Positions 19,862 through 30,057 of a stretch of DNA of 44,635 nucleotides are shown piece after piece. The notes under the pieces were generated by a model. That model had not been told where the DNA came from and ran no database searches. It was given only the letters and a program-made list of their open reading frames with translations. The position numbers and the translations under genes are program-made. Position 1 is the first letter of the stretch. Each line of letters starts with the position of its first letter. Source of the DNA: Ruminococcus sp. (lineage in GTDB: Bacteria > Bacillota > Clostridia > Oscillospirales > Ruminococcaceae); NCBI GenBank assembly GCA_017470535.1, contig JAFUYP010000032.1, positions 1 to 44,635 of the forward strand, given 5' to 3'.

Positions 19862-22549
19862 ATGCTGCTGTTTGTATGGCTCATATTGCCTTTGATACTG
19901 CTGCCGCTGTTTATCAGGGAGCAGAATAAAACCAAGCGCCATGCTGTGTTCATAAACGAGCTTTACTGTACCGGGCGTATCTCCGATGATGAGTATTTCA
20001 AAGCCCTCGGCTATGCCCCTGCTTTCGTGCTCAGACAGCAGCGTGAGAATTTCCTGCGCTCTCAGGGTGTCGCTCCTGCTGCCTCTGCGCCTTCACCTGC
20101 CCCGGGCGCACCTGTTCCGCCTGTTCCGCCGCAGGGCGTACCTCCCATACCGCAGGGCGTACCACCCATACCGCAGGGCGTACCACCCATGCCCGGCAGT
20201 ATCCCAAAGCCTGCACCTGCACAGTTCACATCGGCAGGCACAGGGAATATAAACGCCCCTCATCAGAACCTGCAAAATGGCTATATCCCCTCTGCCCCTG
20301 CATATACACCGCCGCCAAAGCAGCAGGTAAGCTCATCATCTGTCATGCTGACAGTGGGCGTTGTGCTGGTATCTGTCGCAGGGCTTATATTCGCAACAGC
20401 CGTCTGGTCAACGATGAGCGGTCTCGGCAGGAGCGCTACTATCGCATTTGCGGCAGCATTTTTCTATATCATCAGCTTCTTTTCAAATAAAAAGCTCGGC
20501 GTTAAAAATTCCTCCAACGCCTTCTTTATGTTAGGCTCGGTGTTTTGTGTTATAACCTTTCTTACCGCCGGCTATTATCAGCTTATGGGCAATGAGTTCA
20601 CCTTTGACGGCGACCACCAGTGGCTTTTCATCGGTACGTCAGCACTGCTTGCAGCGCTTCTTGCCCACGCCGGCAGCAGACTTTTTGCAAGACCCTACTA
20701 TCATGGCGCTTCGATATGCGGCGTGTACCTTTTCTATGTTCTGCTGTCAGTCGATGTGTCGGTGCCGTCCTCGGGGGCGTTCTCGCTTATGATGTCGGCA
20801 GCACTGTGCGTCACGGCACCCCTGACGGCAATACATAAAAAGTCCGGCTCTGTTACAGACACCCTTTTGCCGGTGCTTACAGGCTTGTCCGCCGTGATGA
20901 CGCTCTATTCGCCGTTCACGGTGAGGTTTGCACGCTGGAAGACCCCCGATACGCTTGCAGCAATGGTAGTTTTTCTGCTGCTGTGCGCCCTTGCCTGTAA
21001 ACGTGAGAGCAGGAACCTCTGGGGCGTGCATAGTATATATGTCATACCCTTTGTTATAAGTATCATAATGCAGACTATGAGTGATAAGGACGATCTGCTC
21101 CTTATGACGTTTATATACCTCTCAGTTTTGTGCGTGGGGCTTGTGTACAGAGCCTTTCCGCTTATAAGGTCTGACATCTCCGATAACGTCTATCTCATAG
21201 CCGGAGCTGTTATCCTTATCGTGAATATCGGCACGAACGCCGACTATTCCCTTGTCCCGGCGCTGCTTTACATTGTCCTGTTCGGGCATCTTTGTATTTT
21301 CGCCTTTGATAAGCGTGTAAAGCCTGACAGGAATATCTACCCTCTCTGCCTGCCCATTCCCCTGCTTTTTGCAGCCGTGTGTGTAAGGCTATATGTAAAC
21401 CACAGCCTGCCCACCGCTTCCGATACGCTTTCAAGATCCGACAAGTCCTCGCTCATCATAGCATCACTTGTCGTTATATATGCAGCGGCAGAGTTTTATT
21501 TTTCATCACTTTATAAAAGCAAGAGCTTCTACCGCTTGCACGCATATGCCTTTACAGCAGGGGCGGTTATAATGTCAGTGTTCCTGTTCGACACGGGGGA
21601 AAATATCCCTGTTATGATATTTGCGTCCTTTGCAGCGGCATTAGCGGCTGCTGCAACGCACCTGAGTACGGCACAGCCTGCCTCGGCAGTCCCGGCAGCG
21701 GTGTGTATGCTCGTTGTCACTAATATAATAGTTTCGGCAGTCGATGACGGATATGCTTTCACAGACCTTTTCGTCCGTGCAGGTGTTACGGCATTTGCGG
21801 CACTGCTGTCAAGACTTCTCTTCCCCGGCTCGCTTGTAAAGACCGAAAACGGTAAAACAAAAGCCGACTTTCTTGCCGCCGCATCAATGATAGGTCTTGT
21901 CAGTCTGTTTATGCTTGATGTCTTTGAAGTACCGGCAGGTGACGCTAAGACAGCACGCTTTGTATTCTGGCTGCTTGCAGCGTTCATCGCATTTATGTTT
22001 ATAAGGAAAAGCGCCAATGACAGCTTTAATACAGCGCTCAGGCTGATATCGTCATTTGCACTGATGAAAGCCTTTATCGCAAGACCGTTCCTTGTGTCGG
22101 ACGAGCAGAGCGTCAATACAAAGATCGCCGTTACGCTGGTCGCACTTTTCGGCTTTGCGGCAAGGTATATCCTTCGCAAAAACGAGGTCTTTTCCGAAAA
22201 CTTCGCCATGACCGTGCATATCATCTCACTTGTGATACTTGTGGGAGATGCGCTCACACACCAGACGCTTGCAAATACCCTTATAGTAATGTCCACGGCG
22301 GCAGTGATAATGGTAGTGTCATTTATCATCAAGAAAAAGCGCTGGTTCCTTATCTCCGCCGTAATGCTCACAGGGCTTACGATATATGTGTGCAGGGATT
22401 TCCTTATGTCGATAAGCTGGTGGGTGTACCTTCTTGTTGTCGGCTCGGCGCTTATCGCTATCGCCGTCACCAACGAATACTTAAAGAACCGCCCCCGTGA
22501 CGACAGCGAAAAGCCGCACGGCAGATTTTTTGAGGAATGGAAATGGTAG
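19862..22549 (+). CDS. Large polytopic membrane protein with SHOCT-like N-terminus and PQGV repeats
   Basis: An 895-residue protein of unknown function. Residues 2-18 form a membrane helix. A SHOCT-like segment follows (FINELYCTGRISDDEYFKAL, about 31-50), then a Pro/Ala-rich cytoplasmic linker (70-160) with three copies of the heptad PPIPQGV encoded by a 21-bp tandem repeat. From about 165 to 880 there are some 22-25 hydrophobic helices with almost no long loops, ending in a charged tail (RPRDDSEKPHGRFFEEWKW). The layout recalls DUF2339/DUF2157-type giant membrane proteins of Firmicutes. No transporter signature was recognised. Start follows AAAGGGGGGCGAG. Probably in an operon with the CPBP protease. 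Confidence 0.75.
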   Translation: MLLFVWLILPLILLPLFIREQNKTKRHAVFINELYCTGRISDDEYFKALGYAPAFVLRQQRENFLRSQGVAPAASAPSPAPGAPVPPVPPQGVPPIPQGVPPIPQGVPPMPGSIPKPAPAQFTSAGTGNINAPHQNLQNGYIPSAPAYTPPPKQQVSSSSVMLTVGVVLVSVAGLIFATAVWSTMSGLGRSATIAFAAAFFYIISFFSNKKLGVKNSSNAFFMLGSVFCVITFLTAGYYQLMGNEFTFDGDHQWLFIGTSALLAALLAHAGSRLFARPYYHGASICGVYLFYVLLSVDVSVPSSGAFSLMMSAALCVTAPLTAIHKKSGSVTDTLLPVLTGLSAVMTLYSPFTVRFARWKTPDTLAAMVVFLLLCALACKRESRNLWGVHSIYVIPFVISIIMQTMSDKDDLLLMTFIYLSVLCVGLVYRAFPLIRSDISDNVYLIAGAVILIVNIGTNADYSLVPALLYIVLFGHLCIFAFDKRVKPDRNIYPLCLPIPLLFAAVCVRLYVNHSLPTASDTLSRSDKSSLIIASLVVIYAAAEFYFSSLYKSKSFYRLHAYAFTAGAVIMSVFLFDTGENIPVMIFASFAAALAAAATHLSTAQPASAVPAAVCMLVVTNIIVSAVDDGYAFTDLFVRAGVTAFAALLSRLLFPGSLVKTENGKTKADFLAAASMIGLVSLFMLDVFEVPAGDAKTARFVFWLLAAFIAFMFIRKSANDSFNTALRLISSFALMKAFIARPFLVSDEQSVNTKIAVTLVALFGFAARYILRKNEVFSENFAMTVHIISLVILVGDALTHQTLANTLIVMSTAAVIMVVSFIIKKKRWFLISAVMLTGLTIYVCRDFLMSISWWVYLLVVGSALIAIAVTNEYLKNRPRDDSEKPHGRFFEEWKW
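20129..20191 (+). repeat. Three 21-bp tandem repeats inside a coding sequence
   Basis: Units at 20129-20149, 20150-20170 and 20171-20191 differ at one or two bases and encode the repeat PPQGV(P)PI in the linker of the large membrane protein. Copy number is likely to vary by slippage. Confidence 0.85.
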
Positions 22550-22570
22550 CCGGGCTCCACGGATATGTCA

Positions 22571-22599
22571 TTGACAAAAAATTTAATATATGGTAATAT
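22571..22599 (+). promoter_or_regulatory. Promoter of the ABC exporter operon
   Basis: TTGACA (22571-22576), 17 bp, TAATAT (22594-22599), then AGGAGGAG before the ATG at 22652. Confidence 0.75.
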
Positions 22600-22651
22600 A
22601 TTTCTATATGGGTCATAATAGTACCCGGTTTATTAAAAAGGAGGAGAAAAT

Positions 22652-23386
22652 ATGGAAAAAGTGCTGGAAGTCAAGGGGCTTTCCAAGCAGTATAAGAAGG
22701 GTGTCTACGCATCACAGGGCGTTACGTTCCATGTGAATAAGGGCGAGATATTCGCACTTATCGGACCAAACGGTGCCGGCAAGACCACCACTATCAGAAT
22801 GATAGCCACACTTCTTAAAGCTACGGAGGGCGACGCTGTTGTCGCAGGTCACAGTATACTCACAGAGCCTGATAAGGTGAGGGAGAATATCACCTACCTT
22901 CCCGATGAAGCAGGCGCATATAAGAATATGAAGGGTATAGATTACCTTAAATTCATGGCAGGCATCTACGCTAAGGACGCTAAAAGTGCCGCAGAATATG
23001 TAGAGCGTGCAAAGGAGATATGCGGTCTGGGCGACAGACTCAATGATAAGATAGGCGGCTATTCCAGAGGTATGGCAAGAAAGCTGCTCATAGCCCGTGC
23101 TATCATGCCGCAGCCTGCACTTGCGATATTCGACGAGCCGACATCGGGTCTTGATATAATAAACGCCCTTGATGTAAGGCGTATGATAAAGGATCTTGCC
23201 GCAAAGACAGGCATGAGCTTCCTGCTTTCCTCGCATAATATGCTGGAGATAGAATATGTCTCCGACAGAGTGGGCATAATAGCAAAAGGTCACGTCCTTG
23301 AGGTCGGCGAGCCCAAGGAGCTTATCGAGAAATACGAAGCACGCAATCTTGAAGAGGTCTTTGAAAGGGTGGTGAAACAGCAGTGA
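22652..23386 (+). CDS. ABC transporter ATP-binding protein, NatA-like
   Basis: A 244-residue nucleotide-binding domain. Walker A is GPNGAGKTT (about 37-45), the signature region is GGYSRGMARK, Walker B is LAIFDEP, and the switch His is in LSSHNML. The signature differs from LSGGQ in the way seen in NatA/CcmA-like exporters. The C-terminal YEARNLEEVFERVVKQQ is typical of this group. It overlaps the permease gene by GTGA at 23383-23386, indicating translational coupling. Together they resemble the NatAB sodium/ABC-2 exporter type; the substrate (ion, drug or peptide) cannot be read from sequence. Confidence 0.93.
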   Translation: MEKVLEVKGLSKQYKKGVYASQGVTFHVNKGEIFALIGPNGAGKTTTIRMIATLLKATEGDAVVAGHSILTEPDKVRENITYLPDEAGAYKNMKGIDYLKFMAGIYAKDAKSAAEYVERAKEICGLGDRLNDKIGGYSRGMARKLLIARAIMPQPALAIFDEPTSGLDIINALDVRRMIKDLAAKTGMSFLLSSHNMLEIEYVSDRVGIIAKGHVLEVGEPKELIEKYEARNLEEVFERVVKQQ

Positions 23387-24699
23387 AATTCGTTCATCTT
23401 TTCAAAAAGGAATTAAAAGAGATGCTCAGCCCCTCTACCATCGCCACCATGATAATAACAGTTATGGTCATGATAATGGCAGGCAATGCTATGTCAGGTG
23501 CAGTTGACGAAGCAGAGGAAGAGAGCAGCGCTATCACTATATGTAATCAGGACGATACCGAGTTTACAAAGCAGGTGCTTAAATTCCTTGAAACTCCGGC
23601 AGGCGGCGAGAAAAACGATGTCAAGTATGTAACACTTGATTCTGATGACTATACAAAAGAGCTTAAAGACAAGGACATCAAAAACGTAGTCATCATACCG
23701 GCAGGCTTCTCCGAGAAGATCTCAAACAGCGAGCAGGCTACAATAAAGTACGTTGCAAGAATGACATCACTTTCAACTATGTCAAATGTGTCTACCGGCT
23801 CTACAAACGCTATGAACCTTATAAACGCAGCGGTCAAGAGTGCGTTCTATTCATCAAAGGTGCAGTCGGGCGCTCTTGCGGATAAGGAAGTCGCAATGCT
23901 CGAATCCCCGGTCAAGGTCGAGGAAACGACAGTAGTTGCCGATAATTCTCAGAGTATATCCCCGAGCCTTATAATAGCTGCGACCCAGATGAGCAATATG
24001 TTCCTGCCGATAATGGTGTTCGTGCTGGTTCTGTATTCATCGCAGATGATACTCAATGCCGTTGCGACCGAAAAGATAGACAAAACGCTCGAAACACTTC
24101 TTTCAGCGCCCGTGTCAAGACTGTCTGTCCTTACAGCGAAGATGCTCGCAGCAGGCATAGTTGCAGGTATAAACGCAATTGTGTATATGTTCGGTATGAA
24201 CCGTATGACAAGCTCTGTCTCAAACCTTACATCAAGCTCAGTCGATAACCTTGACGAGGTGCTTAAAAACTTAGGGCTCACACTGTCAGTAGGCGACTAT
24301 GTCCTTGTAGGCGTGCAGATGTTTTTGACTATACTCATAACACTTTCTATCTCGCTCGTCCTCGGCGCACTTGCCAAGGATATGAAGAGCACACAGTCCT
24401 ACATACTCCCCGTAATGGTAATGGCTATGATACCGTATATGCTCTCGATGTTTGTGGATATAACCACCCTGACACCGGCACTTAAATATGCAGTATACGC
24501 TATACCGTTCACACATACCTTTATGGCGACACAGAACGTAATGTTCGGCAACACCACACTTTACTGGGCAGGTCTTGCATATCAGCTGGTACTGCTGATA
24601 CTGTGCATGGGCTTTGCAGTAAGAGTGTTTACAAGCGATAAGATATTCACAATGACCCTTTCCTTCGGGAAAAAGAAGCATAAGAGTGCAGAAGAATAA
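23383..24699 (+). CDS. ABC-2 family permease, NatB-like
   Basis: A 438-residue membrane protein with a GTG start overlapping the ATPase stop. One membrane segment near the N-terminus (about 18-38) is followed by a long extracytoplasmic domain (about 40-190; DESSAITICNQDDTEFTKQV onward). Five or six further helices from about 200 form the ABC-2 core, with the TEKIDKTLETLLSAPVSR motif characteristic of NatB-type permeases. Expected to form the membrane half of the exporter with the gene at 22652. It ends 6 bp before the TraB/GumN lipoprotein gene, so all three may be one transcript. Confidence 0.9.
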   Translation: MKFVHLFKKELKEMLSPSTIATMIITVMVMIMAGNAMSGAVDEAEEESSAITICNQDDTEFTKQVLKFLETPAGGEKNDVKYVTLDSDDYTKELKDKDIKNVVIIPAGFSEKISNSEQATIKYVARMTSLSTMSNVSTGSTNAMNLINAAVKSAFYSSKVQSGALADKEVAMLESPVKVEETTVVADNSQSISPSLIIAATQMSNMFLPIMVFVLVLYSSQMILNAVATEKIDKTLETLLSAPVSRLSVLTAKMLAAGIVAGINAIVYMFGMNRMTSSVSNLTSSSVDNLDEVLKNLGLTLSVGDYVLVGVQMFLTILITLSISLVLGALAKDMKSTQSYILPVMVMAMIPYMLSMFVDITTLTPALKYAVYAIPFTHTFMATQNVMFGNTTLYWAGLAYQLVLLILCMGFAVRVFTSDKIFTMTLSFGKKKHKSAEE

Positions 24700-24705
24700 T
24701 TACCT

Positions 24706-25749
24706 ATGAAAAAAAGAAAACTTTTGTTGTGCCTTGCCCTGGCAGCTTTGATGCTGTCAGGCTGCGGCAGCAGCTCCTCATCATCTGAACCGGACAGCGA
24801 AGAAAATACCGTGACCGAAAGCTCTGACAGCAAGGTCATAGTCACACTTCCGCAGGACAGCTCTTCCCCCGATGAGTCATCGCAGGAGGATACTCAGTGT
24901 ACACCGCTCACCTGGCGCATCACCGCCGAAAACGGCAATACTATGACGCTTATGGGCTCAATGCACGCACTTGATCCCGACATCTTTCCTCTGCCCGAAA
25001 AGATCACAGACGACTATGAAGCCGCAGATGTTCTTGCAGTCGAGTGCGATGTAAAAGAGTTCAACAACAATCTCACCGAGCAGCTCAGACTTATGAATAT
25101 GACGACCTATGAAGGCGATGAAACGATCTTAGACCATATAAAGCAAAGCACCTGCGACAGCCTGCTTGAGTTTTTGAATAATAACGGCTATAATATGCAG
25201 AGCTTAGGCTCCTATAGGCCGTGGTATCTGCAAAGTATGTGCGAAAATATCATACTGCAAAAAGCCGGGCTCGATGCGTTCAGGGGCTTTGATTTTACGC
25301 TGCTCAATATGGCGCACGATGACGGCAAGGAGATATATGAAGTCGAGTCTATCGAGATACAGCTGCAAATGCTCACAGAGCTTCCGGATGAGATAATGGA
25401 TATTCAGCTTGCAACATATACAGTCGGGAACGACCGGCACCTGACCGACCAGATGAGAGCGCTCTATGATGTGTGGCGTATAGGCGACATTGACAAAACG
25501 GCGCAGTTTATCAAAGACGATGAAGAAGCAACAAAAGAGTCTGTCGGCGAGGAGCTGGCGCAGCAGCTTGAAGAGTATAATAAAAAGCTCGAGGACGACA
25601 GAAACGTCGTAATGGCAGACGCTGCCGAAAAGCTGCTAAGCGAGCATAAAAATACAATGTTCGTAGTCGGTCTTGCTCATTTTATGGGCGATAACGGAAT
25701 AATAAAGCTGCTTGAAGACAGAGGCTATACAGTAACACTTGATAAATAA
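24706..25749 (+). CDS. TraB/GumN-family lipoprotein
   Basis: A 347-residue predicted lipoprotein (leader MKKRKLLLCLALAALMLSGC, lipobox LSGC) with a Ser/Glu-rich linker to about residue 65. The rest is a TraB/GumN (Tiki-like) domain: the N-terminal motif GSMHALD contributes a conserved His, AVECDV a conserved Glu, and the C-terminal GLAHF motif a second His. Eukaryotic Tiki relatives are metalloproteases; bacterial GumN-type activities are poorly known. It begins 6 bp after the permease gene and is likely part of that operon. Confidence 0.88.
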   Translation: MKKRKLLLCLALAALMLSGCGSSSSSSEPDSEENTVTESSDSKVIVTLPQDSSSPDESSQEDTQCTPLTWRITAENGNTMTLMGSMHALDPDIFPLPEKITDDYEAADVLAVECDVKEFNNNLTEQLRLMNMTTYEGDETILDHIKQSTCDSLLEFLNNNGYNMQSLGSYRPWYLQSMCENIILQKAGLDAFRGFDFTLLNMAHDDGKEIYEVESIEIQLQMLTELPDEIMDIQLATYTVGNDRHLTDQMRALYDVWRIGDIDKTAQFIKDDEEATKESVGEELAQQLEEYNKKLEDDRNVVMADAAEKLLSEHKNTMFVVGLAHFMGDNGIIKLLEDRGYTVTLDK

Positions 25750-25773
25750 TATGACCATACCCACGGAAAGGAC

Positions 25774-27996
25774 GTGATCTTTATAAATATCACATTTAAT
25801 GAAAAGACAAGGACATTCAAGCTCGATGCTAAGGATACGACATATATGCTCATGGTGGCAGACGGCGAGTACCTCGCTCATGTATACTACGGCAGAAAGC
25901 TCCCCGATGATTCGCTCATATCTGTAATGAGATTTGACGAAAGCCCCTTTACACCTGCAACAAATAACCGTGACAGGGCGTCGTATCTTGATACACTTCC
26001 TATGGAGTACCCATGCTTTGGTATCGGCGACTACCGTGAGCCGGTGCTGCGTATAACCGCACCCGACGGCACATCTACCTGTGACCTGAGATATAAGGGG
26101 TATGATATCACATCAGGCAAGCCTTCCCTTGAAGGTATGCCTGCGACCTTTGCGACCGATGACAGCCCGTGCAACACCCTTGAGATAATACTTGAAGATA
26201 AGCCGGCAGGGCTTGAGGTGTCGCTTTTCTATACAGCCTTTGAAAAGCTCGATGTCATCACAAGAAGTGCAGTTATAAGAAATGTAAGCAATGACAAGAG
26301 CGTGTACCTTACCCGTGCGCTGTCTGCGTGTGTTGAGTTCGATACACATGAATTTGATATGATAACATTAAACGGCTCGTGGGCAAGAGAGCGTGCCGTC
26401 GAGAGATGCAGGCTTCACCACGCAAAGCAGCTCGTTGATTCCTGCAAAGGCGAAAGCTCCCACCAGAACAATCCGTTCGTAGCTCTCTGCGAGCATAAGG
26501 CAGACGAGGATATAGGCGAGGTGTTCGGCTTTAACTTCGTTTACTCCGGCAACTTCATGGCGCAGGCAGAGGTCACACAGCATAAGAAAACACGCTTTGT
26601 AATGGGTATAAATTCGATAGACTTTTCGTGGAAGCTCGATAAGGGCGAGAGCTTTACCGCCCCCGAGGTGGTAATGGTCCATAGCGACAGCGGTATCGGC
26701 AAGATGTCACGCACCTTCCATGACCTGTATAGAAACAACCTTATCCGTGGCGAGTATAAGGATAAGCGCCGCCCGATACTTATAAATAACTGGGAGGCTA
26801 CATACTTTGATTTCAATACCGATAAGCTGATAGATATTGCCCGTGAGGCAAGTAAGCTCGGTATCGAGATGCTCGTTATGGACGACGGCTGGTTCGGTCA
26901 CAGAGACAGCGATAATTCCTCCCTCGGCGACTGGTTCGTGTATGAAAAGAAGATAAACGGCGGCTTGAAGCACCTTGTAGATGAGGTCAATAAGCTGGGG
27001 CTCAAATTCGGTATCTGGTTCGAGCCTGAAATGGTCTCCCCCGACTCCGAGCTTTATAAAGCGCACCCCGACTGGGCGATACAGATCGGCGGACGTGAGC
27101 TTACCATGTCAAGAGAGCAGTATGTGCTTGACTACTCCCGTAAGGAGGTCAGAGACTACGTCTACGGCATGATGAAGAATATCCTTGACTCTGCGAACAT
27201 CGAGTATATCAAGTGGGATATGAACCGCCAGCATACCGAGGTCGGCTCAAACGCACTTCCTGCCGACAGACAAAAGGAGCTGTGGCATAGATATGTCCTG
27301 GGCGTCTATGACCTTATGGACAGACTCACCACAGACTATCCGCATATACTTCTTGAAAACTGCTCGGGCGGCGGCGCAAGGTTTGACCCTGCAATGCTTT
27401 ATTATAGCCCGCAGATATGGTGCTCTGACGATACCGATGCGATAGAGCGCTTAAAGATACAGCACGGCACATCTGTCTGCTACCCCTGCTCGGCAATGGG
27501 CGCACACGTTTCCGACTGCCCGAACCATACCGTCGGCAGGAACACACCCTTTGAAACAAGGGGCGATGTCGCACTTGTCGGTACATTCGGCTATGAGCTT
27601 GATGTCACCCGTATCCCCGAGGAGGACAGGAACGCTATCCCCGGTCAGATAGAGAAGTTCAAGAAGTACAATCCCCTTGTGCGTACCGGCGACCATTATA
27701 GGATAGGCAATGTGTTTGAGGATAATACCTGGGACGCATGGATGTTTGTAGCAAAGGATAAGAGCGAGGCGCTGTTTGAGTTTGTCCAGGTGCTTGGAAG
27801 ACCTAACGAGCGATCACGCAATATCAAGCTAAAAGGCCTTGACCCCGACGCATACTACTATGAGGAAACAAAGCCCGATGAAAAGCTCTCAGGTGCGGCA
27901 CTCATGTATGTCGGCATCAATATCGCCAAGATGTGGAACGTAGACGGTCTGTACGGCGATTTCAAGTCAAAGACCCTGCATTTTGTGAGGGCTTGA
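25774..27996 (+). CDS. Alpha-galactosidase, GH36
   Basis: A 740-residue cytoplasmic glycosidase that releases galactose from alpha-1,6-galactosides such as melibiose and raffinose-family sugars. The N-terminal beta-supersandwich is followed by the TIM barrel. The nucleophile is Asp482 in IKWDMNR and the acid/base is Asp552 in CSDDTDAIERLK; their spacing of 70 matches characterised GH36 enzymes. Other family motifs are DDGWFG, GIWFEPEMV and CSGGGARFD. It has a GTG start with GGAAAGGA upstream. No signal peptide, so substrate must be imported. The stop codon overlaps the -35 box (27993-27998) of the first small RNA in the following toxin array. Confidence 0.96.
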   Translation: MIFINITFNEKTRTFKLDAKDTTYMLMVADGEYLAHVYYGRKLPDDSLISVMRFDESPFTPATNNRDRASYLDTLPMEYPCFGIGDYREPVLRITAPDGTSTCDLRYKGYDITSGKPSLEGMPATFATDDSPCNTLEIILEDKPAGLEVSLFYTAFEKLDVITRSAVIRNVSNDKSVYLTRALSACVEFDTHEFDMITLNGSWARERAVERCRLHHAKQLVDSCKGESSHQNNPFVALCEHKADEDIGEVFGFNFVYSGNFMAQAEVTQHKKTRFVMGINSIDFSWKLDKGESFTAPEVVMVHSDSGIGKMSRTFHDLYRNNLIRGEYKDKRRPILINNWEATYFDFNTDKLIDIAREASKLGIEMLVMDDGWFGHRDSDNSSLGDWFVYEKKINGGLKHLVDEVNKLGLKFGIWFEPEMVSPDSELYKAHPDWAIQIGGRELTMSREQYVLDYSRKEVRDYVYGMMKNILDSANIEYIKWDMNRQHTEVGSNALPADRQKELWHRYVLGVYDLMDRLTTDYPHILLENCSGGGARFDPAMLYYSPQIWCSDDTDAIERLKIQHGTSVCYPCSAMGAHVSDCPNHTVGRNTPFETRGDVALVGTFGYELDVTRIPEEDRNAIPGQIEKFKKYNPLVRTGDHYRIGNVFEDNTWDAWMFVAKDKSEALFEFVQVLGRPNERSRNIKLKGLDPDAYYYEETKPDEKLSGAALMYVGINIAKMWNVDGLYGDFKSKTLHFVRA

Positions 27997-28021
27997 CAAA
28001 CAGAATAAATGATGCTATAAT
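27993..28021 (+). promoter_or_regulatory. Promoter of antitoxin RNA 1
   Basis: TTGACA (27993-27998), 17 bp, TATAAT (28016-28021). The -35 box overlaps the stop codon of the alpha-galactosidase. Confidence 0.85.
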
Positions 28022-28027
28022 AAAAGT

Positions 28028-28107
28028 GTCAAAACAAACAAGTTGACCGTCAGGTCAAAACAAAGCACCCCCAACGAAACTGCTACTTTCGTCGGGGGCT
28101 TTGTTTT
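28028..28107 (+). ncRNA. Putative antitoxin RNA, unit 1
   Basis: Predicted transcript of about 80 nt from the promoter at 27993 to the bidirectional terminator. Its 5' end carries TCAAAACAAACAAGT (28029-28043), identical to 28231-28245 within the start region of peptide gene 1. It is therefore complementary to the toxin mRNA around its TTG start. A second zone of complementarity is the shared terminator. The size and layout match antitoxin RNA II of the pAD1 par locus (family knowledge). Confidence 0.7.
28057..28107. terminator. Bidirectional terminator, unit 1
   Basis: AAAACAAAGC (28057-28066) pairs with GCTTTGTTTT (28098-28107), with inner CCCCC/GGGGG and ACGAAA/TTTCGT stems. Both strands end in T-rich runs, so it can stop the plus RNA and the minus peptide mRNA. 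Confidence 0.85.
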
Positions 28108-28129
28108 AGGCTGTTGCTGTCAGTTAGTT

Positions 28130-28243
28130 TTACTTCCTTTTTCCGTTCAGCCATTTACGAATGCGCCTGCGAAGATATGTAAAAATAAAGTTTGCAAGCA
28201 CACCCGTTGCAACGGGCAAAAGAATATACATCAAAACAAACAA
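28130..28243 (-). CDS. Fst-like small hydrophobic toxin, copy 1
   Basis: A 37-residue peptide with a Pro-containing hydrophobic segment (residues 2-22, with LLPVATGVLANF) and a strongly basic tail (YLRRRIRKWLNGKRK). The TTG at 28243 is chosen because AAAGGGGGG lies 6 nt upstream and the aligned copy 2 has no in-frame ATG. An ATG at 28231 (33 residues) is possible but its ribosome site would be about 18 nt away. The mRNA of about 225 nt starts near 28283 and ends at the terminator shared with antitoxin RNA 1. Expected to insert in and damage the cell's own membrane, as Fst does; this is inferred from architecture and composition. Confidence 0.78.
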   Translation of the reverse strand: MFVLMYILLPVATGVLANFIFTYLRRRIRKWLNGKRK

Positions 28244-28289
28244 GTCAGTCCCCCCTTTCCGCTATCGGATTGGGTTTGACAGCACTATA

Positions 28290-28352
28290 ATTATACCACA
28301 CCTATTCCAGGAAGTCAAAGGACTTGACAAACAGAAGAAATAATGCTATAAT
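28290..28352. promoter_or_regulatory. Back-to-back promoters: toxin 1 (minus) and antitoxin RNA 2 (plus)
   Basis: Minus strand: TTGACT (28313-28318), 17 bp, TATAAT (28290-28295). Plus strand: TTGACA (28324-28329), 17 bp, TATAAT (28347-28352). The two -35 boxes are only 5 bp apart. A TTGACAGCACTATAAT string on the plus strand nearby is not a promoter, having a 4-bp spacer. Confidence 0.82.
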
Positions 28353-28358
28353 AAGTAC

Positions 28359-28434
28359 AGTAATGAACGAACAACTAAACTCAAAAACAAAGAACCCCCT
28401 CAAGAGTTGCAGCTCTTTTGGGGGTCTTTGTTTT
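28359..28434 (+). ncRNA. Putative antitoxin RNA, unit 2
   Basis: Predicted transcript of about 76 nt. Its 5' part carries GAACGAACAACT (28365-28376), identical to 28559-28570 across the TTG start of peptide gene 2, and different from the repeat used by unit 1. It ends at the terminator 28384-28434. Confidence 0.7.
28384..28434. terminator. Bidirectional terminator, unit 2
   Basis: AAAACAAAGA pairs with TCTTTGTTTT around CCCCCTCAAGAG / CTCTTTTGGGGG. T-rich ends on both strands, as in unit 1 but with a different loop sequence. Confidence 0.85.
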
Positions 28435-28454
28435 AGGCTGTTGCTGTCAGAGTT

Positions 28455-28568
28455 TTACTTCCTTTTTCCGTTCAGCCATTTACGAATGCGCCTGCGCAGA
28501 TATGTAAAAACAAAATTTGCAAGCACACCCGTTGCAACGGGCAAAAGAATAGATAATAGAACGAACAA
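28455..28568 (-). CDS. Fst-like small hydrophobic toxin, copy 2
   Basis: A 37-residue peptide differing from copy 1 only at a few N-terminal and membrane positions (MFVLLSILLPVATGVLANFV, then the same basic tail). No in-frame ATG exists; the TTG at 28568 follows GGGGTGA with 6-nt spacing, as in copy 1. Promoter TTGACT-17-TATAAT at 28615-28643 on the minus strand. The start region differs from copy 1 exactly where the antitoxin RNA's repeat differs, so each RNA matches its own toxin. Confidence 0.78.
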   Translation of the reverse strand: MFVLLSILLPVATGVLANFVFTYLRRRIRKWLNGKRK

Positions 28569-28614
28569 CTTTCTCACCCCTTTCCGCTATCGGATTGGGT
28601 TTGACAGCACTATA

Positions 28615-28677
28615 ATTATACCATACCTATTCCATGAAGTCAAAGGACTTGACAAACAGAATAAATGATGCTATAAT
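28615..28677. promoter_or_regulatory. Back-to-back promoters: toxin 2 (minus) and antitoxin RNA 3 (plus)
   Basis: Minus strand: TTGACT (28638-28643), 17 bp, TATAAT (28615-28620). Plus strand: TTGACA (28649-28654), 17 bp, TATAAT (28672-28677). The arrangement is the same as at 28290-28352. Confidence 0.82.
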
Positions 28678-28683
28678 ATAAAT

Positions 28684-28760
28684 GGTCAAGGGTATTATAA
28701 GTAACTGACCAACAGGTTTACAAAAAGAAAAGCCGGAGGAAGGCAGTCCTCCGGCTTTTT
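28684..28760 (+). ncRNA. Putative antitoxin RNA, unit 3
   Basis: Predicted transcript of about 77 nt. It carries AAGGGTATTATAAGTAACT (28688-28706), matching 28852-28868 except for a two-base indel. That segment encodes the residues just after the ATG of peptide gene 3. It ends at the terminator 28728-28760. Confidence 0.68.
28728..28760. terminator. Bidirectional terminator, unit 3
   Basis: AGCCGGAGGA (28731-28740) pairs with TCCTCCGGCT (28748-28757), with A/T runs on both sides. It is shared by antitoxin RNA 3 and toxin 3. Confidence 0.85.
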
Positions 28761-28767
28761 ATGCTGG

Positions 28768-28872
28768 CTACTTCTTTTTACACTTGCTGTACAGCCATTT
28801 GCAGATGTCGTAGATAAAATTGGCAGTAACACCTGCTCCAACAGAAGCAATAAGGGTAATAAGTAACTCCAT
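28768..28872 (-). CDS. Fst-like small hydrophobic toxin, copy 3 (diverged)
   Basis: A 34-residue peptide, MELLITLIASVGAGVTANFI followed by YDICKWLYSKCKKK: one membrane segment and a basic tail. Relative to copies 1 and 2 it conserves G-V-x-A-N-F and K-W-L, lacks the Pro and has two Cys. It has an ATG start with a strong AAGGAGGTGG site, unlike the TTG starts of the others. Its N-terminal LITLIASVGAGV is the part most like classical Fst peptides. Own promoter at 28921-28949 (TTGACT-17-TATAAT on the minus strand). Confidence 0.78.
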   Translation of the reverse strand: MELLITLIASVGAGVTANFIYDICKWLYSKCKKK

Positions 28873-28920
28873 ACAGGTCCACCTCCTTCCTTATTAGGTC
28901 GGAGCAGAAGCAGCACTATA

Positions 28921-28949
28921 ATTATACCATACTCCTATCGTTAAGTCAA
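28921..28949 (-). promoter_or_regulatory. Promoter of toxin 3
   Basis: Minus strand: TTGACT (28944-28949), 17 bp, TATAAT (28921-28926). There is no back-to-back plus-strand partner here, so this marks the end of the array. Confidence 0.8.
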
Positions 28950-28956
28950 ACAAACT

Positions 28957-28990
28957 ACCCCCGACAAAAGCCATAGCTTTTGTCGGGGGT
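28957..28990 (-). terminator. hisC terminator
   Basis: ACCCCCGACAAAAGC (28957-28971) is the exact complement of GCTTTTGTCGGGGGT (28976-28990). It lies between the hisC stop and the toxin array. The T run after it on the minus strand is short. Confidence 0.7.
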
Positions 28991-28995
28991 CATTG

Positions 28996-30057
28996 TCATC
29001 TTACAAACTCTCTCACCGCCTCGGTAAGCCTGTCAGATTCCTCGTCCGTGCCTACCGTTATGCGTAAATAGTTGTCTATCCTCGGCGAATCAAAATACCT
29101 TATGAATATCCCCTTGTCACGCAGATAAGTGAAAATATCCTTTGCCTTGTAACGTGGGTGCGTCACAAACAGGAAATTCGCCGCACTCGCAGCCACCTTA
29201 AATCCCAGCTCTGTAAACTCACCTGCCAGCCGCTCACGGGTAGCTATGAGCTTTTTAAGCGTACCCTTGAAATACTCATCGTCCTCTACTGCCGCACAGC
29301 CTGCCGCTATCGCCACCGCATCTACGGGGTAGGAGTTGTAGGAATCCTTCACCGCATTCATGTATGAGATAAGCTCCTCGCTGCCCATAGCAAAGCCGAG
29401 CCTCATGCCTGCAAGCGAGCGTGACTTTGAAAACGTCCTTGTTATAACAAGATTGTCGTAGCTTCCAAGTAAGTCCACACAGCTTTCACCGCCAAAGTCT
29501 ATGTATGTTTCATCAAGCACTACGATAACATCACGGTTTGCGTCGAGCAGCCTTATTATCTCACCTTTTGAGAGCGCAATGCTCGTCGGCGCATTCGGGT
29601 TCGGGAAAATGATGCCGCCGTTCGGTACGCAATAGTCATCGACATTTATCGTAAAGTCCTCCCTCAGCGGTATCGTTTTGAAGGGGATCTTTAATATCTC
29701 GCACCATACCGGATAGAATGAATAGGTCACATCGGGGTAAAGTATCGGCTCACTGCCGTTGAAAAACGCCCTGAACGCCGCTGCCAGAACATCATCAGAG
29801 CCGTTGCCTACAAATATCTGTGAGGTCTTTAAACCGTAATACTCCGCCAGCCTTGACCTTAGCGGCTCGCCCGAAAAATCCGGGTACCTGCGAAGCGATG
29901 ATACATCAAATCCGTTTATCGCTTTTTGTACCATAGGCGACGGCGGATAAGCGTTCTCGTTGGCATTGAGCTTTATTATCCTGTCATTTTTCGGCTGTTC
30001 GCCTGCAACGTAAGGCGTGATGTTTATAAGATTTCTGCGAAAGCCTGTCTTTTCCAT
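28996..30057 (-). CDS. hisC: Histidinol-phosphate aminotransferase
   Basis: A 353-residue fold-type I PLP enzyme that converts imidazole-acetol phosphate and glutamate to histidinol phosphate in histidine synthesis. Key segments: KLNANENAYPPSP near the N-terminus, the YPDVTYSFY region, FPNPNAPTS, LDETYIDF (Asp binding the PLP nitrogen), and TFSKSRSLAGMRLGF with the Schiff-base Lys. The C-terminal Arg region is YLRITVG. No other his gene is adjacent, and members of this family can also serve aromatic or other amino acids, so the exact substrate is family-level. AAGGAG precedes the ATG. Confidence 0.9.
   Translation of the reverse strand: MEKTGFRRNLINITPYVAGEQPKNDRIIKLNANENAYPPSPMVQKAINGFDVSSLRRYPDFSGEPLRSRLAEYYGLKTSQIFVGNGSDDVLAAAFRAFFNGSEPILYPDVTYSFYPVWCEILKIPFKTIPLREDFTINVDDYCVPNGGIIFPNPNAPTSIALSKGEIIRLLDANRDVIVVLDETYIDFGGESCVDLLGSYDNLVITRTFSKSRSLAGMRLGFAMGSEELISYMNAVKDSYNSYPVDAVAIAAGCAAVEDDEYFKGTLKKLIATRERLAGEFTELGFKVAASAANFLFVTHPRYKAKDIFTYLRDKGIFIRYFDSPRIDNYLRITVGTDEESDRLTEAVREFVR

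What the first reader, a model, noticed from the sequence alone, without database searches (positions are those of the whole stretch)
27993..28949. Three tandem Fst/par-like type I toxin-antitoxin modules
Three ~330-bp units each contain a minus-strand gene for a 34-37 residue membrane peptide with a basic tail. Each also has a convergent plus-strand RNA of ~75-80 nt, consensus promoters for both, and one shared bidirectional terminator. The predicted mRNA (~190-227 nt) and antitoxin RNA sizes match the pAD1 par locus. The sequences are too short for ordinary gene calling, so the locus would normally be left blank. A three-copy chromosomal array in a Ruminococcus-type bacterium is, to my knowledge, undescribed.
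Basis: partly seen in the sequence, partly recalled or inferred. Interest (0 to 1): 0.92.

Follow-up and report, generated by a model that had tools for sequence, protein, structure and literature searches.

The report
Tandem self-specific toxin–antitoxin RNA modules
Three side-by-side copies of a tiny gene pair that looks like a poison with an RNA antidote were found in a Ruminococcus-like bacterium; each antidote fits only its own poison, and the same unannotated design recurs in related bacteria, in arrays of up to six.

Summary
Window 27993-28949 holds three ~325-bp units, each with a minus-strand gene for a 34-37 aa single-helix peptide, a convergent plus-strand RNA (~76-83 nt predicted), near-perfect promoters for both and a shared bidirectional terminator. 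The peptides carry the Fst/Ldr signature (P/SxxxG, W before the charged tail), although curated Fst/Ldr models miss them.

Profiles built from them find the module in 26 of 394 genomes sampled in the order, 21 of 391 in the class and 17 of 398 in the phylum. In 84 units the antitoxin fits its own toxin best, ties included, in 76 (strictly best in 69). Tandem arrays recur, up to six units, mostly mutually specific; among similar paralogues the recognition block is the least conserved part in 28 of 32 pairs. Seven plasmid or phage copies fetched share the design. Expression and toxicity are untested. New member of a known kind; the orthogonal arrays are the interesting part.

The parts
27993..28021 (+). 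Unit 1 antitoxin promoter (TTGACA-17-TATAAT); its -35 box overlaps the stop codon of the GH36 gene
28028..28107 (+). Unit 1 predicted antitoxin RNA (~80 nt)
   Evidence: from promoter and terminator positions; inferred, not mapped
28029..28043 (+). Unit 1 recognition element in antitoxin (TCAAAACAAACAAGT)
   Evidence: 15/15 identical to 28231-28245; 0 of 500 shuffles
28067..28099 (.). Unit 1 shared bidirectional terminator
28130..28243 (-). Unit 1 toxin ORF, TTG start, 37 aa MFVLMYILLPVATGVLANFIFTYLRRRIRKWLNGKRK
   Evidence: dN<dS
28231..28245 (-). Unit 1 recognition element over the toxin start codon
28290..28318 (-). Unit 1 toxin promoter (TTGACT-17-TATAAT); predicted mRNA 28283-28058
28324..28352 (+). 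Unit 2 antitoxin promoter
28359..28434 (+). Unit 2 predicted antitoxin RNA (~76 nt)
   Evidence: inferred
28365..28376 (+). Unit 2 recognition element in antitoxin (GAACGAACAACT)
   Evidence: 12/12 identical to 28559-28570 within a longer gapped match; 0 of 500 shuffles
28394..28425 (.). Unit 2 shared bidirectional terminator
28455..28568 (-). Unit 2 toxin ORF, TTG start, 37 aa MFVLLSILLPVATGVLANFVFTYLRRRIRKWLNGKRK
28559..28570 (-). Unit 2 recognition element over the toxin start codon
28615..28643 (-). Unit 2 toxin promoter; predicted mRNA 28608-28385
28649..28677 (+). Unit 3 antitoxin promoter
28684..28766 (+). Unit 3 predicted antitoxin RNA (~83 nt)
   Evidence: inferred
28688..28717 (+). 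Unit 3 recognition element in antitoxin (AAGGGTA..ATAAGTAACT..ACAGGT, gapped)
   Evidence: matches 28852-28878 with gaps; 0 of 500 shuffles
28728..28759 (.). Unit 3 shared bidirectional terminator
28768..28872 (-). Unit 3 toxin ORF, ATG start, 34 aa MELLITLIASVGAGVTANFIYDICKWLYSKCKKK
28852..28878 (-). Unit 3 recognition element over the toxin start codon
28921..28949 (-). Unit 3 toxin promoter; predicted mRNA 28914-28719
28957..28990 (-). Perfect 15-bp hairpin terminator after the aminotransferase gene 28996-30057; separates that gene from the array

Best explanation
Each unit is a type I toxin-antitoxin module of the par (RNA I/RNA II) design. The toxin promoter makes a ~200-225-nt mRNA whose 5' end folds back on the sequence just after the stop codon and whose Shine-Dalgarno is held in a hairpin. 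The convergent promoter makes a ~80-nt antitoxin RNA. The two RNAs share the terminator hairpin (first contact, by analogy with pAD1) and a 12-30-nt repeat at the antitoxin 5' end that is complementary to the toxin's translation start (block of ribosome binding). If antitoxin synthesis stops, the mRNA, inferred to be longer-lived, is translated and the peptide, a single membrane helix with a charged tail, damages the membrane or halts growth. The units are duplicates whose toxins stayed alike while the recognition repeats diverged in step on both RNAs, so that each antitoxin controls only its own toxin: three independent switches in a row. Shown by sequence: anatomy, cognate-only complementarity, coding constraint, conservation, recurrence. 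Inferred: transcription, RNA half-lives, translation block, toxicity.
For: Architecture. Cognate repeats in the window: own 30/30/32 with 0 of 500 shuffles each, cross 12-18; duplex energies own -27.3/-23.4/-37.3, cross -9.9 to -18.4 kcal/mol. 84 units with a convergent promoter picked by promoter score alone: own leader best, ties included, for 76 of 84, strictly best for 69 of 84; own mean 30.7 against 13.4 for 6972 cross pairs; own duplex lowest for 79 of 84. Compensated change: G006 has TCAAAATAAACAAGT in both RNAs where the window has TCAAAACAAACAAGT in both. Toxin 5' end pairs with its own post-stop region better than with others' on average (74 units, 0 of 2000 permutations). Shine-Dalgarno paired in the folds of 3 of 3. 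Peptides: hydrophobic 19-aa stretch, PVATG/PVATG/SVGAG; W in 46 of 46 aligned relatives (rows chosen by me from the 54 ORFs). Commonest NCBIfam hit of the relatives is a type I toxin: NF047374 in 21 of 46, best E 5.5e-5; Pfam Ldr in 5 of 46, NCBIfam Fst in 4 of 46. Recognition block least conserved in 28 of 32 similar paralogue pairs. Plasmid and inovirus copies: 7 of 7 fetched have a convergent promoter (9-12 of 12) and a repeat over their own start. G003 keeps an orphan antitoxin without toxin, G005 is empty.
Against: No transcription, translation or toxicity data. The window peptides hit no Fst/Ldr model (Pfam and NCBIfam, E<=1); the only type I hit is NF047374 for unit 3 at E 0.027, 14.9 bits against a cut-off of 60. 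In Pfam the commonest weak hit of the relatives is not a toxin (ATPase_gene1, 8 of 46) and a holin family has 4 of 46, as small hydrophobic peptides would give. No YUNR U-turn in the three terminator loops (read). 7 of 95 ORFs had no convergent promoter by my rule and 4 were cut by contig ends. In 8 of 84 units another leader scores above the own one, once the tandem neighbour's (L030, 26 against 24). The 5'-end pairing is a group effect: only 12 of 74 units individually beat the 5% level. Median net charge is +1 and 50 of 84 peptides are net positive, so a basic tail is not general. The window genome is a 76%-complete draft.
Confidence: 0.92

Rival explanations
1. The peptide is a small regulatory membrane protein (not a toxin) whose dose is tuned by antisense RNA, for example acting on a transporter or on sugar use; the same RNA logic without poison and antidote.
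For: Sequence alone cannot show toxicity. Low, patchy prevalence and 34 of 84 peptides not net positive. In the window, G001, G003 and G006 the antitoxin promoter overlaps the end of an alpha-galactosidase gene, and some chromosomal par loci are tied to sugar genes (PMC7472228, abstract and passages).
Against: Carriage by small plasmids and an inovirus, arrays with private antitoxins, an orphan antitoxin and the weak likeness to type I toxins fit poison and antidote better; the neighbours listed differ from locus to locus.
Confidence: 0.08
2. Not an alternative to the mechanism but to its purpose: an anti-addiction bank. Chromosomal units were captured from plasmids or phages and are kept because their antitoxins neutralise incoming modules of the same recognition type.
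For: Same design on plasmids of Mediterraneibacter, Waltera, Butyricicoccus, Mogibacterium and others; orphan antitoxin kept without its toxin in G003; diverse recognition types side by side.
Against: No chromosomal antitoxin was compared with, or shown to match, a plasmid toxin; the 7 mobile units do not match one another (cross scores 10-20). The listed neighbours of chromosomal units are mainly housekeeping genes with few integrases.
Confidence: 0.2
3. A selfish duplicating repeat in which the ORFs are by-products.
For: 92% identity of units 1 and 2 over 228 nt; patchy occurrence.
Against: dN<dS in 10 of 10 pairs; mismatches between units 1 and 2 are concentrated in the recognition block (11 of 18 in 35 of 228 nt) and each antitoxin carries the matching change; no ORF over 120 aa lies in the intergenic stretch, so no transposase there.
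Confidence: 0.02

Closest known systems
par of plasmid pAD1 (Fst, RNA I/RNA II) and chromosomal par loci (E. faecalis EF0409, S. mutans fst-Sm/srSm)
   Same: Convergent promoters, bidirectional terminator, direct repeats over the toxin start codon, toxin-mRNA self-pairing (PMC7472228 passages); ~200- and ~70-nt RNAs in fst-Sm, whose antitoxin starts 108 bp from the toxin stop codon (PMC3543317 passages), against about 102 nt predicted in unit 1 (28028 to 28130).
   Different: Peptides not recognised by Fst models; KWLD/KWLN tail motif; tandem arrays of mutually specific units; no U-turn loop in the window's units. The review notes that the repeats are poorly conserved between par loci and that the pAD1 antitoxin does not protect against the EF0409 toxin, so specificity itself is not new.
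Ldr/Rdl of E. coli
   Same: Fst/Ldr signature; three of the four E. coli LDR units stand in tandem (PMC4147584 passages).
C. difficile type I toxins (CD2517.1-RCd8 and kin; NCBIfam NF047374)
   Same: Convergent toxin and antitoxin, small membrane peptides, mostly cognate-only neutralisation (PMC6563280 passages); weak NF047374 hit in 21 of 46 family members.
   Different: Toxins of 34-53 aa with lysine-rich tails, reported as without homology to other type I toxins (same passages); scores here far below the 60-bit cut-off.

Membership tests
par-type (Fst) type I TA locus | Convergent promoters for toxin mRNA and antitoxin RNA | tested here: met
   3 of 3 units, 11-12 of 12 consensus positions
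par-type (Fst) type I TA locus | Shared bidirectional intrinsic terminator | tested here: met
   3 of 3 units by sequence (scan hits); function not tested
par-type (Fst) type I TA locus | Direct repeats giving antitoxin complementarity to the toxin start region | tested here: met
   3 of 3 units, cognate only; own best incl. ties in 76 of 84 family units
par-type (Fst) type I TA locus | Toxin mRNA self-pairing that hides the 5' end and the Shine-Dalgarno | tested here: met
   MFE folds of 3 of 3; 5'-end pairing as a group effect, 0 of 2000 permutations over 74 units, 12 of 74 individually below the 5% level; not probed
par-type (Fst) type I TA locus | YUNR U-turn in the toxin terminator loop (not in all homologues, says the review) | tested here: not met
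   loops GUAGCAG, CUGCAA, ACUGCC read; review passage
Fst/Ldr toxin superfamily | W between the transmembrane helix and a charged C-terminus | tested here: met
   3 of 3 (in units 1 and 2 the W lies inside the basic tail); 46 of 46 in A5, 79 of 84 with a W after residue 12; both sets were gathered with profiles that hold the W
Fst/Ldr toxin superfamily | P/D/S/TxxxG(C) motif in the helix | tested here: met
   PVATG, PVATG, SVGAG; strict motif 48 of 84 in the family, 79 of 84 if S or N is allowed for G
Fst/Ldr toxin superfamily | Match to curated Fst/Ldr profiles | tested here: not met
   no hit for the window peptides; sub-threshold for a few relatives. So: par-type by anatomy, Fst/Ldr-like by signature, not a member of the curated Fst family by score
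Type I toxin-antitoxin | Peptide toxic, antitoxin RNA neutralises it | not testable with these tools
   needs experiment
C. difficile CD_typeI_toxin (NF047374) | Score above the curated 60-bit cut-off | tested here: not met
   unit 3 14.9 bits; best of 46 members E 5.5e-5

The most novel reading that the evidence does not exclude
Clostridia carry a large, unannotated family of par-type RNA-controlled peptide toxins, on chromosomes, cryptic plasmids and filamentous phages, in which duplicated units are driven to orthogonality: the RNA recognition block diverges fastest while toxin and promoters are kept, producing arrays (two to six) of independent poison-antidote switches. The arrays may act as a bank of private antidotes against plasmid- or phage-borne modules.
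Probability: 0.4. Interest if true: 0.78.

Novelty: new member of a known kind. Interest (0 to 1): 0.58.

Why it matters
The units are very short and too diverged for the curated models tried, so modules of this kind can stay blank in annotation, as they do on the plasmids looked at (PLSDB gene tables, which are incomplete). Arrays of similar toxins with private antitoxins are a natural experiment on how RNA-RNA specificity evolves: 84 cognate pairs plus cross pairs inside one genome let pairing rules be tested directly. They also bear on why chromosomes keep such modules, which the 2020 review calls largely obscure.

Tried and rejected
Fourth copy in the same genome: contig C68 proved a redundant contig; the C77 hit is a promoter before another ORF, with no unit (read). 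Rfam: two sub-threshold hits only, SpF66 (E 0.0089) and RsaJ (E 0.79); not used. Neighbourhood: 138 of the 139 nearest ORFs listed were scanned; the 25 families shown of 157 (Pfam) and of 70 (PHROGs) are mainly housekeeping or unnamed with a few integrases; the rest of both lists was not seen. Unit 3 by tblastn: no phage match at E<=1, one weak plasmid match at E<=10. The first architecture scan chose the promoter partly by the repeat score and was replaced. Rows dropped before counts: 8 of the 54 ORFs before building A5 (L023, L033 and L066 for poor starts or contig ends; L041-L044 and L046 judged spurious); 11 of 95 ORFs (7 without promoter, of which L112 is clearly no family peptide; 4 truncated). 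A first paralogue count (27 of 30) used 11 of the 16 multi-unit loci; one search repeats it on all 16: 28 of 32 pairs with rest-of-ORF identity of at least 0.70 (a filter that raises the ORF column but not the leader column), 44 of 58 without the filter. The array loci were chosen because they had several hits. Structure prediction was not run. A profile comparison with Fst proteins proper was not run.


Full report
CHECK. The sequence at 27993-28949 holds three units as described. Plus promoters are 12/12 consensus with a 17-bp spacer, minus promoters 11/12, all six with TG before the second hexamer; they make up 6 of 16 such sites (11/12 or better) in the 44.6-kb window. Each unit has one short minus-strand ORF with a Shine-Dalgarno and a hairpin with T-runs on both strands. 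Predicted mRNAs are 226, 224 and 196 nt, antitoxin RNAs 80, 76 and 83 nt. The array lies between an alpha-galactosidase gene (GH36, 25774-27996) and an aminotransferase gene (28996-30057, minus), which has its own terminator at 28957-28990.

THE MISSING PIECE. The first transcribed bases of each plus-strand RNA repeat the plus-strand sequence over the start codon of the same unit's toxin: unit 1, 15 of 15 (28029-28043 = 28231-28245); unit 2, 12 of 12 inside a longer gapped match; unit 3, a gapped match of 30 against 27 nt. Own scores are 30, 30, 32 (0 of 500 shuffles each); the six cross scores are 12-18. Predicted duplex energies are -27.3, -23.4, -37.3 for own pairs and -9.9 to -18.4 for cross pairs. 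So each antitoxin is complementary to the ribosome-binding region of its own toxin mRNA and not of its neighbours. Units 1 and 2 differ at 18 of 228 ungapped positions, 11 of them in a 35-nt recognition block (Fisher p 3.7e-6; the block was chosen after the repeats were seen).

RELATIVES. The genus set has 7 genomes, own included, 3 of them at least 90% complete. Homologous units sit beside GH36 in G001 (two units; 2-contig genome), G006 (one) and G002 (one, with another gene between). G006 has a C-to-T change in both the antitoxin and the toxin leader, a compensated change. G003 keeps the promoter, recognition element and terminator of an antitoxin of unit-1 type beside GH36, but its locus and genome give no toxin hit; G005 has GH36 and no unit there and no hit in the genome. 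G004 gave no GH36 match but has a unit-3-like unit on contig 37, and G006 has another peptide on contig 29 without a convergent promoter. The unit-1/2-type gene is under purifying selection (dN<dS in 10 of 10 pairs of 5 genes).

FAMILY. A profile of the seven genus peptides hits 47 of 396 genomes of the family at E<=0.05; the weakest hits look spurious. A 46-row profile hits 26 of 394 genomes of the order, 21 of 391 of the class and 17 of 398 of the phylum at E<=0.001; the own genome is in each sample and a few others recur, and a few hits lie in longer frames. From the loci held at that time 95 distinct ORFs were taken: 84 had a convergent promoter whose -10 box lies 55-150 nt beyond the stop (chosen by promoter score alone), 7 did not, 4 were cut off. 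For the 84, the own leader gives the best score, ties included, in 76 and strictly in 69; own mean 30.7, cross mean 13.4 (6972 pairs), 99th percentile 22, exceeded by 77 of 84. Of the 8 units that lose, one loses to its tandem neighbour (L030, 24 against 26) and the others to units elsewhere, some of them similar peptides (L100 to L115, L076 to L045); cross scores of 30 or more occur 10 times, among them the window's unit 1 with G002 and G006, which share its recognition element. The own duplex is the most stable in 79 of 84. The toxin mRNA 5' end pairs with the region after its own stop codon better than with that of others on average (74 units with a toxin promoter found; own -11.7, cross -8.6; 0 of 2000 permutations), though only 12 of 74 pass the 5% level one by one. 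Peptides are 24-38 aa.

ARRAYS. Eighteen loci, the window included and 16 of them with two or more units, were examined because they had several hits or came from the same genomes. Six units in a row stand in G1452 contig 28, four in G1317, three and three in G1442, three in G368 (a one-contig genome), and pairs elsewhere. The 49 own scores average 31.6 (minimum 22); the 116 within-locus cross scores average 14.4, and 6 of 116 reach 22: two are exact duplicates in L053, two are in the four-unit array L226 (23, 30), one in L047 (23) and one in L056 (26). In L231 two toxins identical at 34 of 35 residues have repeats that do not cross-match (own 27 and 37, cross 15 and 16). Over all 58 within-locus pairs the recognition block is on average 62% identical, the leader/promoter 76% and the rest of the ORF 72%, and the block is the lowest in 44; over the 32 pairs with ORF identity of at least 0.70 the means are 67, 84 and 81% and the block is the lowest in 28 (one search was an earlier count on part of the loci). 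This is what selection for private recognition after duplication would give; the start of the ORF may also simply tolerate change.

MOBILE COPIES. tblastn with a blended family peptide lists 241 plasmid records (179 Enterococcus) and 12 phage records at E<=1; the listed Enterococcus rows are weak (E 0.04-0.7). Seven records were fetched, picked by me: plasmids of Mediterraneibacter gnavus, Waltera intestinalis, Butyricicoccus sp., Mogibacterium neglectum, Ligilactobacillus salivarius and Streptococcus thermophilus, and an inovirus from rodent faeces. All seven have a convergent promoter (9-12 of 12) and a repeat over the toxin start (own 20-41, cross 10-20; the Butyricicoccus copy is the weakest, 20, reached by 1 of 100 shuffles), and none has a listed gene at the match; the plasmid gene tables are incomplete.

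KNOWN KINDS. Weaver's 2020 review (PMC7472228; abstract and passages) gives the features used in the membership table. By curated profile the window peptides are not Fst or Ldr. Among 46 relatives the commonest NCBIfam hit is the C. difficile type I toxin model (21, below cut-off); Fst has 4; in Pfam, Ldr has 5 and Fst 1, but an ATPase-subunit family has 8 and a holin family 4 (E<=0.1). The Clostridia review (PMC6563280; passages) says that an earlier homology search found Ldr/Fst-like sequences in two Clostridium species only, and that C. difficile antitoxins are mostly cognate-only; Weaver's review names commensal Clostridia among Fst hosts. Three tandem Ldr units are known in E. coli (PMC4147584; passages). 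Passages of PMC10903887 and PMC11318856 did not bear on this family. The listings showed no paper on par/Fst arrays or type I modules of Ruminococcus or Lachnospiraceae; one paper holding all terms (PMC11406385) was not opened, and the library is open-access only.

MECHANISM AND FUNCTION. Most likely: translation of a membrane-active peptide is blocked by its own short antisense RNA, three times over in parallel, each pair insulated. What the array is for is not settled. A link with sugar use is possible: in the window, G001, G003 and G006 the -35 box of the first antitoxin overlaps the GH36 stop codon, so no terminator can lie between and GH36 read-through would carry the antitoxin sequence in its 3' end (sequence observation; function inferred). 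An anti-addiction bank is the boldest reading that the data leave open.

Noticed in passing
window 27993-27998: The -35 box of antitoxin promoter 1 overlaps the stop codon of the GH36 alpha-galactosidase gene; also in G001, G003, G006. GH36 mRNA would end in the antitoxin sequence.
   Followed up: partly
L126 about 2693-2800 (G003): Orphan antitoxin RNA gene of unit-1 type beside GH36, with no toxin found in the locus.
   Followed up: partly
L225 675-3119 (G1452 contig 28): Six par-like units in tandem, each with its own recognition repeat, plus a seventh on the other strand 4.4 kb away.
   Followed up: yes
L242 (inovirus PQ006183.1) and L237, L238 (gut plasmids): The same module on a filamentous phage and small plasmids, with no listed gene at the match.
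   Followed up: partly
G000 contig C68 (L007): Assembly redundancy: 7520 bp, 99.99% identical to window 20944-28463, ending inside unit 2.
   Followed up: yes
L062 (G006 contig 29): A family peptide with a toxin promoter but no convergent promoter by my rule: perhaps a solitary or differently controlled toxin.
   Followed up: no
window 28717-28906 (-): Sub-threshold Rfam match to SpF66, a streptococcal sRNA (E 0.0089), spanning the unit-3 toxin mRNA; that RNA may itself be a type I toxin mRNA.
   Followed up: no
window 24706-25749: TraB/PrgY-family protein gene just upstream of GH36.
   Followed up: no
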